Shown here: one piece after another, positions 26,224-39,389 of the stretch
Numbering within the stretch: the stretch's first letter is position 1
Layout: the number at the start of each line of letters is the position of its first letter
Translations under genes and position numbers: made by a program
Notes under the pieces: model-generated
Database searches by the model: none
Seen by the model: the letters and a program-made list of their open reading frames with translations, nothing else
Told to the model about the DNA's origin: nothing
From: Calditrichota bacterium
Lineage (GTDB): Bacteria; Zhuqueibacterota; Zhuqueibacteria; Zhuqueibacterales; Geothermadaptataceae
NCBI GenBank assembly: GCA_008501765.1
Contig: QQUE01000015.1
Coordinates: 124,001-188,000, forward strand
Reading direction: 5' to 3'
Length of the DNA: 64,000 nt

Positions 26224-27210
26224 GCAACTCCCGGGCCAAAGAAACAGAACATTAATTATTCTATTATAAATGCATGATTTACGCAAAAAATAAGAACAAT
26301 TTATACCAAGCAATTCTTTGCAATTTTAAGAAACAAAGTTAATATTTCTTAAATTCGGAAAATTCGTGCTTTTCTTGCAATGCGTCCGGGCGATTAGTCC
26401 TGAATTAAACATTGGCGAGGACATTGGATAAAAATTCATAAAAGAAATTGTGTAGCCTGCTCCCTGGTGGGGCACAGAATGCGCTACTCCATTGCGAGAC
26501 TCACGGATCTGATCAACCCATAACCGGTTGGACTACGGTGGCAATGTCAATAACTATTGGAAATTTTTCAGTTTATTCATTTAATCCATTAAAGGGCGTT
26601 ATACAGTTGTATTTTATGCTTTTCAGGTCAATTCTCCTTGCTTGTCAATAAAAAGATTATGATATTGATAAAACTGTAGAATTACTTATTAGTAGCCCCG
26701 TCAAAATAGCTTATGTTTTTCCGTGGGTATTAGTAGAAATTATGTTAAAAATGGAGTCGTGACCACGAAGTCCAAATATCGGTTTCAAGGTATTCGTTCC
26801 GAGGCGTTAGGACATGTCTATTGACAGTTATCCTGTTTTCAGGAGCGCCCTTACCTTCTGTGTGGCGCGACTCCATTTTATTAAAATTCCACACATTCGA
26901 TCTTTTAAATTTCTTATTGCTTTAATGGTATTTTCCCGATCACCTTTCACGGTTGGCAATGGAGTTCAAAAGGCAAAACACGGTCGACATTTGTGAAAAA
27001 ATTGGTTGCACTTGCAAAAGTTTTTTTATCGCTCAGATTTTTCGTGCCATGTGTCACAGTGCTAACTCAGCCTTCCATTTGACCACGAAAACGCTTCAAA
27101 CTTTATTGAATTTGGATCGGCATGAATTTACAGATATGAGCATTTTTATTGGCCACGATAGTCGTGGTACCTAAAGGTAATGTTTGCCGTTAAAATATTG
27201 GTATCTGACG
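26224..27210. other. Gene-poor stretch
   Basis: Almost 1 kb without a supported gene. Frames of 60-73 residues have no ribosome site and no recognisable composition. It includes copy A of a dispersed repeat (26599-26687). No transposase remnant was recognised. Confidence 0.5.
26599..26687 (+). repeat. Dispersed repeat, copy A
   Basis: Begins TTATACAGTTG, contains CTCCTTGCTTGTC followed by ATAAAAA, and ends AAAACTGTAGAATTACTT. It matches 35686-35785 at roughly three positions in four. ACAGTT and AACTGT at the two ends are inverted. In both copies it follows a GG(C/A)GTTATAC sequence, similar to the end of an attC site. Confidence 0.65.
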
Positions 27211-32946: not shown

Positions 32947-33555
32947 ATGCCAGAAAATATCACAATAGCAGCATTCGTTTTAGGTGCCGTGATGCTGTTA
33001 ATTTCAATTGTCGGCGGCAAATTCAAGATATTCGGGGCAGAAGTATCTGCCATGGCAGGCCCGATCAGCAGGATATTCGCCGGGATTGTGGGAACTCTAT
33101 TGCTTGGTATTGGACTTTATAATTCGCTTTATAAATTGGATGCCACGCAAACAGAAGAAAGTGCCAAGCCTTTAGTGGAATCATCACAACCTGCAAAAAT
33201 TAAATCGGTTCCGGAGACGGAGTCGTCCAAGGCGCTGCCCGCGACCTTTGTGCTGGGGAAGTTAACTTGTATAATTCCGCAGGAGCCGGGAGGCGAGGAT
33301 CGAGTCTACTTAAAGTTGGGCGAATCAAAACCTACCAAGGTCTGGAAACTAAAAGCTGGTGAGAGCATTCAAGTAGGACTAACCGTAGCGGCCGGCACCA
33401 GTGTTACTTTGTATGAAAAGGATGGATTATTGACCGATGGAGACGACGATTTTCTCGGCACGGCAAAGCTAATCGGCCGCAGCGGAACCCTGCAATTCAA
33501 GATACCCGAGATAGGCGACCATTTCTACACACTGAGCTACGAACCAGGAGGATAA
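32947..33555 (+). CDS. Two-TM membrane protein with C-terminal beta domain
   Basis: 202 residues; AAGGGAG lies upstream of the ATG. Membrane segments at ~5-23 (ITIAAFVLGAVMLLISIVGG) and ~40-60 (ISRIFAGIVGTLLLGIGLYN) are followed by a Ser/Lys/Glu-rich linker (~70-100). A ~95-residue beta-rich domain follows, with DRVYLKLGESKPTKVW, AGESIQVGLTVAAG and TDGDDDFLG, the acidic run suggesting calcium binding of a C2-like sort. I do not recognise the family. The last 57 codons exist again, diverged, at 35419-35589. Confidence 0.7.
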   Translation: MPENITIAAFVLGAVMLLISIVGGKFKIFGAEVSAMAGPISRIFAGIVGTLLLGIGLYNSLYKLDATQTEESAKPLVESSQPAKIKSVPETESSKALPATFVLGKLTCIIPQEPGGEDRVYLKLGESKPTKVWKLKAGESIQVGLTVAAGTSVTLYEKDGLLTDGDDDFLGTAKLIGRSGTLQFKIPEIGDHFYTLSYEPGG

Positions 33556-33672
33556 TGGCAGTCGGCCACAGACCACCAACCTTTATCTGTATTTGTGGAC
33601 GCAGTTTCAGGCTCGATTATTGATTTTGGTAAATTCGATTTTTCCAAAAAAGCCAGGTAAGGTGAAAATAAC

Positions 33673-33840: not shown

Positions 33841-34029
33841 TTGGGATTGGGAGTTGGAATTTCAACTATTAAAGAACCAGTCGCTTATAAAGCTCTGCTT
33901 TTTAATAAGAAACTATCATTAGTTCAGGCAAAAAAAGAGTTTGAAAGCGAAAAATTTATGACTAATAATCACTTAATTAAATTAACAGTTGATGAATGCA
34001 TATTTGATGATAATATTCAGCCTGGATGA
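33841..34029 (+). CDS. Small hypothetical protein, possibly a remnant
   Basis: 62 codons from TTG; no ATG near the start and only weak ribosome-site sequence. It is AT-rich. KALLFNKKLSLVQAKKEFES could form an amphipathic helix, as in small antitoxins, but no family is recognised. It lies within the segment between the duplicated gene ends (33555 and 35419). It may be a decayed gene. Confidence 0.3.
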   Translation: MGLGVGISTIKEPVAYKALLFNKKLSLVQAKKEFESEKFMTNNHLIKLTVDECIFDDNIQPG

Positions 34030-34137
34030 ATCGCACCGGGTAATAATCCGGAGCAACCGGCAGCTTTTCTGGCCGCCGAACAATCCATATTCAGTCGGCA
34101 TCACCAAAGTAAGATTTCGTTAAAAAGAAAGAAACAT

Positions 34138-35295: not shown

Positions 35296-35418
35296 GGTTT
35301 CGAGGGCGACTGGCTTAAGTAGCACATCACTTTTCGCAAAATCTGAACGCAAACACATTTAGATTTCAGCTTGGTTTATTATCTCCGGATGGCATTTGGG
35401 TATTAAATAATTCCGGCC

Positions 35419-35589
35419 GTAGAAGCCGGCACCAGTGTCACCATGTATGAAAAGGACGGATTATTGACCGCTGGAGACGACCATTTTCTCGGTAAGGCAA
35501 ACCCAACAGGCTCTGGTGGAACGCTGCAATTCAAGATTCCCGAGATAGGCGACCATTTCTACACACTGAGCTACGAGCCCGGGAGCTAG
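35419..35589 (+). pseudogene. Orphan 3' end of a 32947-type gene
   Basis: 57 codons including the stop, with no upstream part. They match 33385-33555 with 46 or so of 56 residues identical (EAGTSVTMYEKDGLLTAGDD, then FKIPEIGDHFYTLSYEPG). The frame is open and many changes are synonymous. Similarity continues for ~70 bases past both stops (GGC.GTC.GCCA). It is a fragment of a diverged homologue, not a fresh copy. Confidence 0.82.
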
Positions 35590-35685
35590 TGGCCGTCAGC
35601 CATAAACTACCAACTTTTGTCGGTGTTGCTTGGCGCAGCATCTGGCATAATTACGCGGTTACTTCATATCATCCTTACGAGGGAG

Positions 35686-35785
35686 TTATACAGTTGAATA
35701 TCCTGGTTTTAAGGCCAAATCCCCTTGCTTGTCGATAAAAATATTCTGATATTATTATATTATTGGGAAAACTGTAGAATTACTT
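35686..35785 (+). repeat. Dispersed repeat, copy B
   Basis: TTATACAGTTG to AAAACTGTAGAATTACTT, matching copy A (26599-26687) with a few small gaps; it shares CCCCTTGCTTGTC and ATAAAAA. It ends ~50 bases before the GHKL-nuclease gene. Confidence 0.65.
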
Positions 35786-35836
35786 GTTATACCATTTTAG
35801 AATTTTAATTCAATAAGAAAGTTGGATTTAAAACAC

Positions 35837-37591
35837 ATGAAGAATTCAGCTCATTTTAAAGTACACCCCAAATTAGCAGAACTTCTTGGAGAAACCTACA
35901 GATCAGTTGAAGTAGCAATAAAAGAATTAATTGATAATTCATATGATGCTGATGCTGAGAATGTCAATATTAGCTTGCCTAAAGAGCTTCAACCTAATCC
36001 GGAGATTATCATTGAGGATGATGGTTTTGGTATGAAAGAAAGTGAAATAAGAACAGAATATTTAGATATTGCAAATAGTCGGATATCTCGTAAAGGAGAC
36101 AGGTCATTTAAAAAGAAAAGAAAGGTTAAAGGGCGAAAAGGAGTAGGTAAATTCTCAGGGTTAATGGTGGCAAATTTCATGAAAGTTGAAGCATTTTCGT
36201 CTGGCCAAAAAACAACTTTGATCATTAATAAGGATGAACTTGCAAGAGCAAATTTTGATTTAGAGAAAGTACCTTTACCGATTGATGTAGAGGAATGCGA
36301 TAAAGATAAACATGGTACAAAAATTACACTCGAGGGCTTAAACCAGAATCTTAATTTTCCAAACCCAGATAAACTCAAAGAAATTCTTATGCGAGATTAC
36401 GGCCGAGAAAATGATTTTTGTTTAATTATCAATAAAAACAATACTGGCGTTCTTGATTTACTCGGGAAGCAGTACTCAAAAGAAATTATTTTGGAAAATG
36501 GTAAAAAAGCATCACTTAATTATACAGTTACAAACAAACCAGTTAAAAATTCTGGAATTGCTATACGCGTTAATAACAAAATAATCGGTAAACCCCATAA
36601 TTATCTTTCAAGTGATGAAATTATTCCGAAAAAACTCCAAAGTAGAGTTTACGGTGAATTGATTTGTGATGATTTAGAAAATGATGTAACAGCTGATTTT
36701 GGTGCTATAATTGAAAATAGTAAATTATATAGTGAGGTCAAAAAAGAGACTGTTGAGCAATTAAAAATTTCTGTGGATGAAGTTTTTAAAACTGATATGA
36801 AAATGGCAAGAGCTCGCTACCAAAGAAAAATAAATCGTGAATTAGAAAAACTACCTGAATATAAACAACCTTTCGCACGCAAAGCTTTATTTAGAACATT
36901 GGAAAAATTTTATGGAGAAAGCGAAGAGCGAATTAATACTGTTATTTCGGTGATGGTATCGGCAATGGAAAAAGACCATTATTGGGATATCATTCATAAT
37001 ATTCAAGAAACAAGAAGTGGTGATATTGAGAGATTTGCAGATGCATTAAATGATTTCGGAATACTTGAAATGAGCATAATATCCAGCCAAGCAATTAATA
37101 GAATGAGGTATTTAGATGAACTTAATTTATTAATTGATAATCCAAAAACTTTAGAGAAAACTATTCATAAAGCACTGGAGAAAAGCACTTGGATTATTGG
37201 AGATGATTATTCCGTACTATTTTCTGATATTAGTTTTGAAAAGGCAATAAAGACTATTCTAGATAAAAAATATAAAGGTGATAAAGCGTTAGATAGACCA
37301 GATTTATTGTTTGGAAGAAAATTGAATAGAGAATTAGTTTTATTCGAGCTTAAGAGACCAGATTTTACTCTAAATCGAGAAACAGAAAAACAAGCTCTTG
37401 AATATCGTGATGAGTTAAATACATATTTTCATAATCAACATATAGAAATAGTATTGTTAGGTGGTAGAATAAAACAAAATATAAGCTCACATAATGAAAG
37501 AGAAGATGTAAAATTTAGAACATATTTAGATATGATCAGTACGGCAAGAAATCGTCTTGAGTGGCTACTAAATGAATTAAAAATAGAATGA
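35837..37591 (+). CDS. GHKL ATPase fused to PD-(D/E)XK nuclease-like domain
   Basis: 584 residues from ATG 35837 (TTG 35822 is possible; the ribosome site is weak). Numbering from the TTG: GHKL (Hsp90/MutL/MORC-type) ATPase motifs are KELIDNSYDADA (34-45, Mg-binding Asn), EDDGFGM (65-71), a lid GRKGVGKFSG (104-113) and HGTKITLEG. A charged helical middle (~300-450) follows. The C-terminus has RPDLLF (492-497), LVLFELKRP (E509, K511) and QALEY (Q524, Y528). That is P-D ... E-x-K plus the Q-x3-Y helix of RecB-like PD-(D/E)XK nucleases. Single-gene GHKL-nuclease proteins suit phage or plasmid defence; I infer that role. The gene is strikingly AT-rich and is followed by an attC-like site. Confidence 0.85.
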   Translation: MKNSAHFKVHPKLAELLGETYRSVEVAIKELIDNSYDADAENVNISLPKELQPNPEIIIEDDGFGMKESEIRTEYLDIANSRISRKGDRSFKKKRKVKGRKGVGKFSGLMVANFMKVEAFSSGQKTTLIINKDELARANFDLEKVPLPIDVEECDKDKHGTKITLEGLNQNLNFPNPDKLKEILMRDYGRENDFCLIINKNNTGVLDLLGKQYSKEIILENGKKASLNYTVTNKPVKNSGIAIRVNNKIIGKPHNYLSSDEIIPKKLQSRVYGELICDDLENDVTADFGAIIENSKLYSEVKKETVEQLKISVDEVFKTDMKMARARYQRKINRELEKLPEYKQPFARKALFRTLEKFYGESEERINTVISVMVSAMEKDHYWDIIHNIQETRSGDIERFADALNDFGILEMSIISSQAINRMRYLDELNLLIDNPKTLEKTIHKALEKSTWIIGDDYSVLFSDISFEKAIKTILDKKYKGDKALDRPDLLFGRKLNRELVLFELKRPDFTLNRETEKQALEYRDELNTYFHNQHIEIVLLGGRIKQNISSHNEREDVKFRTYLDMISTARNRLEWLLNELKIE

Positions 37592-37635
37592 TTAACAGAT
37601 TTGCTATAGTTAAAATTAAATAAACAAAACTATTG

Positions 37636-37766
37636 GTATAACATCTGGCTGGTGTGGGACTCGCTGCGCTCGTGCTAGTTTCCGATTTTTTGGTAGTGCA
37701 AATTTGGGTGGCTTCGTTGACTTTCCGTGGCGATCCCCCGCTCGCGCCCACAGGCAGGCGTTATGC
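37636..37766 (+). repeat. attC-like site 1 (integron cassette recombination site)
   Basis: 131 bases starting GTATAAC and ending GCGTTATGC. The two ends are imperfectly inverted: GTATAACATCTGGCTGG faces GCATAACGCCTGCCTG (complement of the right end), and then GTGGG faces its complement CCCAC with unpaired bases between. This is the R''-L''/L'-R' layout of attC sites. It lies 45 bases after the GHKL-nuclease stop in the expected orientation. The right core GTTATGC deviates from the strict GTTRRRY. No integrase gene is in the window. Confidence 0.5.
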
Positions 37767-37827
37767 TCGAGTAACAATGCTAAAACGTTAATTAACCTAA
37801 ATCTTAGACCTATTCCCGGAGGTTTTA

Positions 37828-39096
37828 ATGAGCAAGAGTAAAAACACTTTCTACACTGCACTACTCTTCTTAACAACATCACTCGTATTTGGACAGTCTG
37901 AGGCCACAGTTCAATTCCTGTTAATCAATCCATCGAATGTGGCAATGGGAAAAGGAGGAACTTCTGTTGTTAATGCATATTATGACCCTGCATCAGTTCT
38001 TTTTAATCCTGCCAATATTGCTGATATGGATATAAACAACAGATTTAGCGTTGTTGGACAATCACATCTTAAAAGCTCAGGCTGGCTGCCACAACTTACG
38101 TCAGATTTAAGCTATACTTCCCTGACTAACCAATACGGCCTCAAGATTCCGAATACTCGGCTAAAATTAGCCACAGGTTATTCCTTGATTCATTTCGACC
38201 TTGACAAACAAGACATTTACGCTGAGGACAGCCCCATTCCTATTGCCACATTTCATTCAAAAGAAGATGCTCATGTTTTTACATTGGGTATGAATTACGA
38301 GTATTACATAAAATTAAATGTGGGATTCAATGCTAAAAAATTCACTTCAAAGCTCGCTCCAGCTTTATCTGATACTTCACAAGCCGGTGATGGTTCAGCC
38401 TCCGGCTGGGGATACGACTGGGGTTACACCATCAAGGCTCCTTTAATAGACTGGTATGATTTCAAGCAGCATTCAAAAATCATCAAACCGTTTCTTAGCT
38501 TGGGCTACGGCTTTTCAAAAAGTAATATTGGTGATAAGGTTACCTATATTGATGAATCACAGGCCGATCCACAGCCAAGAATTGCCAGACAAGGTCTCAA
38601 TTTATTTGGAGGTGTAAAGATTTCGGGAAACGGTTTTGACTTTGATATCTTGTCCATAAATTATTCAAGAGAATTAAGCGATTTATTAATAAATCGGTAT
38701 ACAGATTCGAATGATGAAATCCAAATAGAATATGAAGGTGGGAATGGCAATATCAATTTTTGGGATAATATCTTCAATAAAAATATTCACATGAAAGTGA
38801 TATCTGAACGTGGAATTGAGGTAAATTTCATCGAGACCTTAATGGTACGAACCGGAAAGCACAAAGATATTCGCGGCAGGGTAATTTATGACACTTTTGG
38901 ATATAGTTTCCATTCAGTAGGCGCATTCAAATTGTTAAATTTCATAGATTCTGACTTAACTCAAAACAATTCGTTATATAGTTTCTTGCTCAATTCTGAT
39001 TTTTATTTTGATTATTATAAATTAGAACCAATTAATTGTGGACACCCATTAGATGACACATGGCACACAAGTTTAGGCGTTATAATACATTTTTAG
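37828..39096 (+). CDS. PorV/FadL-like outer-membrane protein in a possible cassette
   Basis: 422 residues with a Sec signal peptide (MSKSKNTFYTALLFLTTSLVFG cleaved before QSEA is approximate). The start of the mature part, NPSNVAMGKGGTSVVNAYYD followed by PASVLFNPANIAD, is the PorV/PorQ and FadL-like N-terminal motif. Repeated beta-strands follow, ending WHTSLGVIIHF with terminal Phe. CGGAGG precedes the ATG. It should form a 14-strand-type outer-membrane barrel; PorV itself shuttles T9SS cargo, but this protein's cargo or ligand is unknown. It begins 62 bases after one attC-like site and ends ~105 before another. It is AT-rich relative to the PorV-like gene at 39510. Confidence 0.75.
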   Translation: MSKSKNTFYTALLFLTTSLVFGQSEATVQFLLINPSNVAMGKGGTSVVNAYYDPASVLFNPANIADMDINNRFSVVGQSHLKSSGWLPQLTSDLSYTSLTNQYGLKIPNTRLKLATGYSLIHFDLDKQDIYAEDSPIPIATFHSKEDAHVFTLGMNYEYYIKLNVGFNAKKFTSKLAPALSDTSQAGDGSASGWGYDWGYTIKAPLIDWYDFKQHSKIIKPFLSLGYGFSKSNIGDKVTYIDESQADPQPRIARQGLNLFGGVKISGNGFDFDILSINYSRELSDLLINRYTDSNDEIQIEYEGGNGNINFWDNIFNKNIHMKVISERGIEVNFIETLMVRTGKHKDIRGRVIYDTFGYSFHSVGAFKLLNFIDSDLTQNNSLYSFLLNSDFYFDYYKLEPINCGHPLDDTWHTSLGVIIHF

Positions 39097-39202
39097 GAAT
39101 TAGATTCAGACCAGTTTAGGTTCATTTAAGATCTTTATAGATTGAAGTTGTTTAGTATTTTATGTCTAAACATTAAATGGTGATGGTAAAGTAAAAATTA
39201 TG

Positions 39203-39331
39203 GCATAACCTTTTGCTGGTTGGGAATTGCTGCGCTTGTGCCAGTTTCAATTTTTTGGGTAGTGTAAAGTTCGGCGGTTTCGTCGACATTCTGTGGTGAT
39301 CCACCGCTCTCAGCAGACCATAGCGTTCAGG
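39203..39331 (+). repeat. attC-like site 2 (degenerate right core)
   Basis: 129 bases related along their length to 37636-37766 (shared GCTGCGCT, GTGCYAGTTTC, ATTTTTTGG, TAGTG and GTGGYGATCC.CCGCTC). The left end GCATAAC is intact; the right end reads GCGTTCAGG where GCGTTATGC would be expected. It follows the outer-membrane protein gene in the same orientation. It may be a dead or diverged cassette site. Confidence 0.45.
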
Positions 39332-39389
39332 TTGGCTGTACTGCGTCAGCCTGAATCGCGCCGGATAAAAAGGTACAAGCGTTTCCCAT

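What the first reader, a model, noticed from the sequence alone, without database searches (positions are those of the whole stretch)
37636..39331. Two attC-like sites bound a gene: possible integron cassette array without integrase
Two related ~130-bp sequences (37636-37766, 39203-39331) lie directly after two same-strand genes. The first has imperfectly inverted ends (GTATAAC/GTTATGC plus an inner L-box pairing) as in attC sites. The outer-membrane gene fits exactly between them as a cassette; the GHKL-nuclease gene would be the preceding cassette. Such arrays far from an integrase are known (CALIN). In this lineage they appear little described.
Basis: partly seen in the sequence, partly recalled or inferred. 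Interest (0 to 1): 0.7.

Follow-up and report, generated by a model that had tools for sequence, protein, structure and literature searches.

The report
Integrase-less integron cassettes carrying defence-type genes
Two genes in this bacterial chromosome are mobile integron cassettes, each ending in its own recombination site, stranded far from any integrase, and they belong to a set of such arrays scattered through the genome that often carry genes resembling known phage-defence genes.

Summary
Both ~130-bp sequences are attC sites. A covariance model built from five attC-type sites elsewhere in this genus, none from the window, finds exactly these two places (85.5 and 72.0 bits; next best 13.1). 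In a congener the same site type follows the first cassette beside an integron integrase.

The strongest evidence is cassette closure: the R'' box of each attC should be the reverse complement of the GTTRRRY box at its own cassette's 5' end. Both window cassettes match 7 of 7. The last site's odd R' (GTTCAGG) is then flanking DNA, which recurs behind a second array.

So the window holds a two-cassette CALIN: a GHKL-ATPase/Shedu-like gene, then a PorV/PorQ-family gene. The genome has 11 such sites at E<0.01 on six contigs. The gene before the site has defence-library matches at 6 of 11 sites, against 0 of 10 flanking genes. One insert is absent from all six relatives. Three arrays begin with an attI-like region shared with congeners' integrons.

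The genome's one intact intI is of another lineage, and the window sites fold poorly, so present activity is doubtful.

The parts
35684..35789 (+). Leader element E at the left end of the array; three copies in the genome, two of them directly before a cassette array. Function unknown (attI-like is a guess)
   Evidence: 80% identical over 131 bp to the left end of the C14b array, 76% to a third copy at window 26598-26691
35787..37760 (+). Cassette 1: from the crossover G|TT at 35786/35787 to the crossover in attC1
   Evidence: 5' box GTTATAC is the exact reverse complement of the R'' box GTATAAC of its attC; AT-rich
35822..37591 (+). Gene of cassette 1: GHKL (HATPase_c_3) ATPase with C-terminal SduA-like (Shedu) stretch; likely start ATG at 35838; 30.8% GC
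   Evidence: Pfam HATPase_c_3 103.6 bits, SduA_C 25.9 bits (below cut-off 27); PADLOC REase_II 64 bits; NCBIfam BbrUII/HgiDII 136 bits, below cut-off
37636..37766 (+). attC1: R'' GTATAAC, L'' GCTGGTGTGGG, L' CCCACAGGC, R' GTTATGC
   Evidence: R1 19.6 bits, E 0.0059; R3 85.5 bits, E 1.1e-21
37761..39325 (+). Cassette 2: from the crossover in attC1 to the crossover in attC2
   Evidence: 5' box GTTATGC is the exact reverse complement of the R'' box GCATAAC of its attC
37828..39096 (+). Gene of cassette 2: 422-aa outer-membrane protein of the PorV/PorQ family; 36.7% GC
   Evidence: NCBIfam PorV_fam 58.8 bits (below cut-off 90), E 6.7e-16; no Pfam or PADLOC match
39203..39331 (+). attC2, last of the array: R'' GCATAAC, L'' GCTGGTTGGGA, L' TCTCAGCAG; R' GTTCAGG is completed by flanking DNA
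   Evidence: R3 72.0 bits, E 7e-18; not found by R1 or R2
39326..39371 (+). Right-flank repeat F, beginning TTCAGG; the same sequence follows the last site of the C14b array, and related copies stand without cassettes on C3 and at window 34027-34089
   Evidence: 83% over 53 bp to C14b; L196 copies 82-91%

Best explanation
The region is an integrase-less integron cassette array (CALIN) of two cassettes, [GHKL-Shedu-like gene + attC1][PorV/PorQ-family gene + attC2], sitting between a leader element and a dispersed repeat. Each cassette was once a circle closed at its own attC, and an integron integrase recombined the folded attC with a G|TT target (shown: cassette boundaries, box complementarity, site family, relatives beside intI; inferred: the integrase step itself). 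The array is most likely a remnant: this site type belongs to an integron lineage whose integrase is found in congeners but not, at the family cut-off, in this genome; three sister arrays still have its attI region, and two of those keep the first intI codons. The array probably persists because its cargo is useful; the first gene looks like a nuclease-type phage-defence gene (inferred from domains). Whether the genome's other, diverged IntI can still move these cassettes is unknown.
For: Two models not trained on the window call the sites (R1; R3). Same site type after the first cassette beside an intI gene in congener G049. Closure rule 7/7 for both cassettes; 8 of 12 cassettes in this genome and G049 against 1 of 12 for the current R'; strict set of nine, permutation p 8e-5; canonical arrays 24 of 32 against 12 of 32. 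All 11 genome sites follow a same-strand gene, AT-rich relative to the flanks. At C11 gene and site together are absent from six of six relatives. attI region X left of C10, C13 and C14c. Covariation of the R and L helices (alignment fitted to the model).
Against: R2 misses both window sites and R1 misses site 2. Bottom strands fold no better than shuffles, worse than ten other attC sites (z -7.57 to -0.06). Site 2 lacks a GTTRRRY R' box. One cassette of C14b breaks the closure rule (4/7). No empty site could be shown for the window locus itself.
Confidence: 0.93

Rival explanations
1. A dispersed palindromic repeat or MITE that happens to resemble attC and settles behind genes, near terminators; the genes are native.
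For: Nine further dispersed copies at E<0.01; poor folding of the window copies.
Against: The genes before the sites are AT-rich (27.7-41.9%) between flanks mostly of 38-53%; at C11 gene and site come as one insert; the R'' box matches the far 5' end of the gene unit, which a repeat cannot explain; the same site type stands beside intI in a congener.
Confidence: 0.03
2. The array arose not by loss of intI but by insertion of free cassettes into a secondary (attG-like) genomic site by an integrase elsewhere in the cell.
For: The right junction G|TTCAGG lies in a repeat that also occurs without cassettes; C11 is an insert without any leader in a syntenic place; no attI region X at the window array.
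Against: A shared leader E precedes both arrays that end in F, which looks like a landing platform; C10, C13 and C14c have attI regions, two with intI codons.
Confidence: 0.35
3. The array is a piece of the C16 integron misplaced by assembly or by a recent rearrangement.
For: Contig C16, which carries intI, starts inside a cassette array.
Against: The window lies inside a 445-kb contig with AT-poorer genes on both sides. The C16 attC is of another type, and its IntI is only 48-51% identical to the IntI of G049 C554 and G050 that goes with this site type and its attI region.
Confidence: 0.03

Closest known systems
CALIN (cluster of attC sites lacking an integron integrase), as defined by IntegronFinder (PMC9024848; passages read)
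   Same: Two or more attC sites with cassettes and no integrase nearby; [quoted passage not shown]
   Different: Several such arrays in one chromosome, some with a recognisable attI region and intI start; attC type that a broad model misses
Sedentary chromosomal integrons as stores of antiphage cassettes (Darracq et al. 2025, known to me here only through PMC12409362, passages read)
   Same: Cassettes carrying small, single-gene defence-type functions
   Different: Here the cassettes lie in small scattered arrays without integrase; defence activity is not tested
attG insertion of cassettes into genomes (Loot et al. 2024; reference entry and passages about it in PMC12901181; the paper itself not read)
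   Same: Cassettes outside an integron, with flanking DNA that supplies the last R' half
   Different: Some arrays here have an attI-like leader, and two end in the same repeat
Shedu (SduA) and GHKL-type restriction enzymes (BbrUII/HgiDII)
   Same: GHKL ATPase domain and an SduA-like C-terminal stretch in the first cassette's gene
   Different: SduA_C is below its cut-off and the BbrUII/HgiDII model scores far below its cut-off; the combination was not tested for function

Membership tests
attC site | R'' (RYYYAAC-like) and R' (GTTRRRY-like) inverted boxes at the ends (consensus recalled) | tested here: met
   Site 1 GTATAAC/GTTATGC; site 2 GCATAAC, with R' completed by flanking DNA (GTTCAGG): met for site 1, half met for site 2
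attC site | Inner L''/L' pairing with an extrahelical base and ~5-nt spacers | tested here: inconclusive
   Clear in congeneric copies (L038: GCTG[G]TGGTGA/TCACCACAGC; covariation on a fitted alignment); degraded in both window sites (alignments)
attC site | Bottom strand folds into a stable hairpin | tested here: not met
   z +1.15 and -0.31 for the window sites; ten other attC sites -7.57 to -0.06. It lowers the claim of present activity, not of origin
attC site | Match to an attC covariance model | tested here: met
   Site 1: R1 E 0.0059, R3 E 1.1e-21; site 2: R3 E 7e-18; R2 misses both. IntegronFinder's own model was not available
Integron gene cassette | One gene plus one attC at its 3' end, same strand | tested here: met
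Integron gene cassette | R'' complementary to the GTTRRRY at the cassette's own 5' end (circular form) | tested here: met
   7/7 for both window cassettes
Integron gene cassette | Recombined by an IntI | not testable with these tools
   Needs a recombination assay
CALIN | At least two attC sites without a neighbouring intI | tested here: met
   Only full IntI of the genome is on C16; no IntI remnant in the window by tblastn (best E 0.61)
Complete integron | intI next to attI and the array | tested here: not met
   not filed as a complete integron
Shedu (SduA) defence system | SduA_C nuclease domain over cut-off | tested here: inconclusive
   25.9 bits against a cut-off of 27; PADLOC SduA E 6e-4. 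Related, not filed as Shedu

The most novel reading that the evidence does not exclude
A distributed integron: this chromosome keeps many small landing platforms (leader or orphan attI, one to a few cassettes, attC) at separate loci, loaded largely with single-gene phage-defence functions, and one integrase acting in trans from C16 still exchanges cassettes among them, so that each platform can express a front cassette without one long array.
Probability: 0.12. Interest if true: 0.8.

Novelty: new member of a known kind. Interest (0 to 1): 0.47.

Why it matters
It shows several integrase-less cassette arrays in one chromosome, with cassette boundaries that can still be read, and links such dispersed cassettes to defence-type genes. 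Two literature searches for integrons in KSB1 or candidate phyla returned no paper, but the genome's phylum was not determined, so this is no claim about the lineage. It also gives a practical test: cassette closure (R'' against the cassette's own 5' box) identifies degraded attC sites that a broad covariance model misses, and it can be run on any genome.

Tried and rejected
Tried without use: Rfam at gathering thresholds on the window and on the intI locus, no matches. Plasmid collection with site 1, no match. A 13-base core pattern with one mismatch: beyond the two window copies it gave chance-like hits (20 hits against 10 for the reversed control). Empty-site search at the window itself: left-flank dehydrogenase absent from the other 14 genomes of the order, right-flank PorV-like gene at no more than 55% identity outside the genome. 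No solved structure by sequence for the GHKL gene. The two PorV-type proteins on either side of attC2 are barely alike (23%, E 0.033).

Considered and rejected: palindromic repeat or MITE, and misassembly of the C16 integron (see rivals).

Rows left out of the 12-cassette closure count: C10 (6/7); C11 (7/7); C14c first two cassettes (7/7 each, read by eye, positions); G049 C399 first cassette (7/7); C14a, C14d and C15 (no boundary I could fix). Some of the 12 boundaries were chosen after I had seen R''; the strict subset of nine avoids that, though one of its rows (C13 cassette 3) rests on a weak site (R2 E 0.046). C14b cassette B fails (4/7). In the whole-genome model searches only 150 of 603 and 150 of 861 first-look candidates were scored for this genome, so site counts are lower bounds. 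Three of the 11 sites (both C13 sites and C10) were in R3's training set.

Full report
What was seen. Two sequences at 37636-37766 and 39203-39331 align at 83% mean column identity, with a local score of 103 against at most 29 in 2000 shuffles. They stand 45 and 107 nt behind two same-strand genes. The first gene has a GHKL ATPase domain and a C-terminal stretch like Shedu SduA and resembles BbrUII/HgiDII restriction enzymes in its N-terminal part. The second is a PorV/PorQ-family outer-membrane protein. Both are AT-rich (30.8 and 36.7% GC) between neighbours of 46.6 and 49.0%.

Are they attC sites? I collected attC sites beside integron integrases with a detector of my own and built a covariance model R1 from 30 of them, none of the window type. 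In the window, both strands, R1 gives a single match at E<=10: 37636-37766, + strand, 19.6 bits, E 0.0059. A broader model R2 from 71 sites misses both window sites, but over the whole genome it finds three others: one beside intI on C16 (a training site), one on C13 and one on C10. The last two share L-box sequence with the window sites. A third model R3, from five sites of this genus outside the window, scores the window sites at 85.5 and 72.0 bits (E 1.1e-21 and 7e-18); the next match is 13.1 bits.

Relatives. In congener G049 a site of this type lies on a contig with an integrase gene (truncated), directly after the first cassette (L037:2426-2553), and another lies in an array of three sites (L038). 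Integron integrases are common in this class: 27 of 63 genomes have one over the family cut-off. The window's genome has one, on contig C16 (448 bits), with an attC of another type. It is 51% and 48% identical to the IntI of G050 and of G049 C554, which are 73% identical to each other.

The closure test. A cassette is a circle whose attC is cut between G and TT (established integron biology, recalled). After insertion the TTRRRY half of its own R' box stays at the 5' end of the cassette, and the R' now seen behind the attC belongs to the next unit. Hence R'' should match the cassette's own 5' box. Cassette 1 starts at GTTATAC (35786), fixed independently as the place where homology among copies of a leader element stops; its attC has R'' GTATAAC: 7/7. 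Cassette 2 starts at the R' of site 1, GTTATGC; its attC has R'' GCATAAC: 7/7. Over 12 cassettes from this genome and G049, 8 match 7/7 to their own 5' box and 1 to their current R'. In a strict set of nine, the summed match is 56 of 63, permutation p 8e-5. As a yardstick, canonical arrays match 7/7 in 24 of 32 neighbouring pairs, against 12 of 32 for the current R'. This also explains the odd R' of site 2: GTTCAGG is flanking DNA. The same flank follows the last site of the C14b array, 83% over 53 bp.

Genome-wide picture. R3 finds 11 sites at E<0.01 in this genome, on C6 (2), C13 (2), C10, C14 (4), C11 and C15; 5 in G049 with two more below 0.005 making up its list to C728; 1 in G050; none below E 1 in four other genomes of the family. 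Only part of the candidates was scored, and three of the 11 were training sites. In 11 of 11 the nearest upstream gene is on the same strand and ends -5 to 182 nt before the site. These genes have 27.7-41.9% GC, 10 of 11 below 37%. At C11 the two flanking genes are neighbours in six of six family genomes, while this genome has about 2.4 kb between them holding a gene and its attC. So there gene and site came together.

Origin of the arrays. A ~170-bp element X at the left of C10, C13 and C14c (and of an array in G049) matches the stretch between intI and the first cassette of G049 C554 and the stretch just upstream of intI in G050. It is therefore, by position, the attI region. My reading of the alignment is that the C13 and C14c copies keep the first intI codons (MQEKSNEN, MQQKSNEN), while no further IntI remnant is found by tblastn in the loci searched (best E 0.26). 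I infer that these arrays are integrons that lost intI. The window array and C14b have another leader, E, found in three copies in the genome, and the repeat F on the right. Whether E is an attI is not shown; insertion into secondary sites remains a real alternative for these two and for C11.

Cargo. Of the 11 genes directly before a site, 6 have PADLOC matches at E<=1e-3: GHKL-SduA, HSDR_N nuclease, FRG (PDC-S15, 80 bits), AAA_13 (PDC-S06, 895 bits), TIR/CAP12 (PDC-S35, 279 bits), NUDIX (PDC-S07, 53 bits). Of ten genes flanking arrays, none has; Fisher p 0.012. Of all 20 cassette-associated genes scanned, including G049's, 7 have a match. The control is small, and PDC families are candidates only; the window gene's own matches are modest. 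That integrons store antiphage cassettes is already in print (PMC12409362, passages).

Against. Bottom-strand folding of the window sites is not better than shuffles (z +1.15, -0.31). Ten other attC sites folded the same way gave z -7.57 to -0.06; the four others of this site type gave -1.00, -2.36, -3.95 and -0.06, so the window sites are among the worst. Pair covariation is strong in the family (13 of 17 pairs with changes on both sides, 0 of 500 shuffles reach it), but on an alignment fitted to the model. The sites are probably poor substrates today.

Verdict. A true two-cassette CALIN, one of several dispersed arrays in this genome. CALINs are a known kind (PMC9024848, passages). The unusual points are their number in one chromosome, the orphan attI regions, and the defence-like cargo. 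The taxon was not determined; PorV-type, TonB/CarboxypepD_reg and Por_Secre_tail proteins suggest the FCB group (inference).

Correction to one count above, from the table: G049 has six matches at E<0.01 (C399, C554, C212, C195, C616, C728), two of them (C399, C554) in R3's training set; G050 has one (0.0072).

Noticed in passing
window 33383-33612 and 35417-35646: A 230-bp stretch holding the tail of the gene 32947-33555 is duplicated (81%) just left of the cassette array, on the other side of an alanine-dehydrogenase-like gene.
   Followed up: no
window 26598-26691: Third copy of leader element E, followed by a WD40-repeat gene and a pRiA4 ORF-3-like gene of lower GC, but without any attC that the models find; perhaps a decayed array.
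   Followed up: partly
L008 1-3515 (G000:C16): The genome's full IntI points the same way as its cassettes (array downstream of intI, contig ends inside the array), unlike the divergent layout in G049 C554 and G050.
   Followed up: partly
L008 5465-6870 (G000:C16): Many near-identical repeats of about 55 bp with inverted halves (CGATACTTTTCGCTTAAAAAGCAAGCGAAACACTCGGGATG) between genes on contig C16.
   Followed up: no
L156 8141-8590, L155 4264-4459 and 8940-8986: A ~200-bp element of nested inverted repeats ending in CATCCGGCGACGTTA occurs between the attI region X and the first cassette of C10, in part at C13, and inside the C13 array; it may be a cassette without a gene.
   Followed up: partly
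L189 5289-8678 (G000:C14): A NUDIX gene and an 825-aa TPR_MalT protein, both at 31% GC, sit together before one attC site: a possible two-gene cassette.
   Followed up: no
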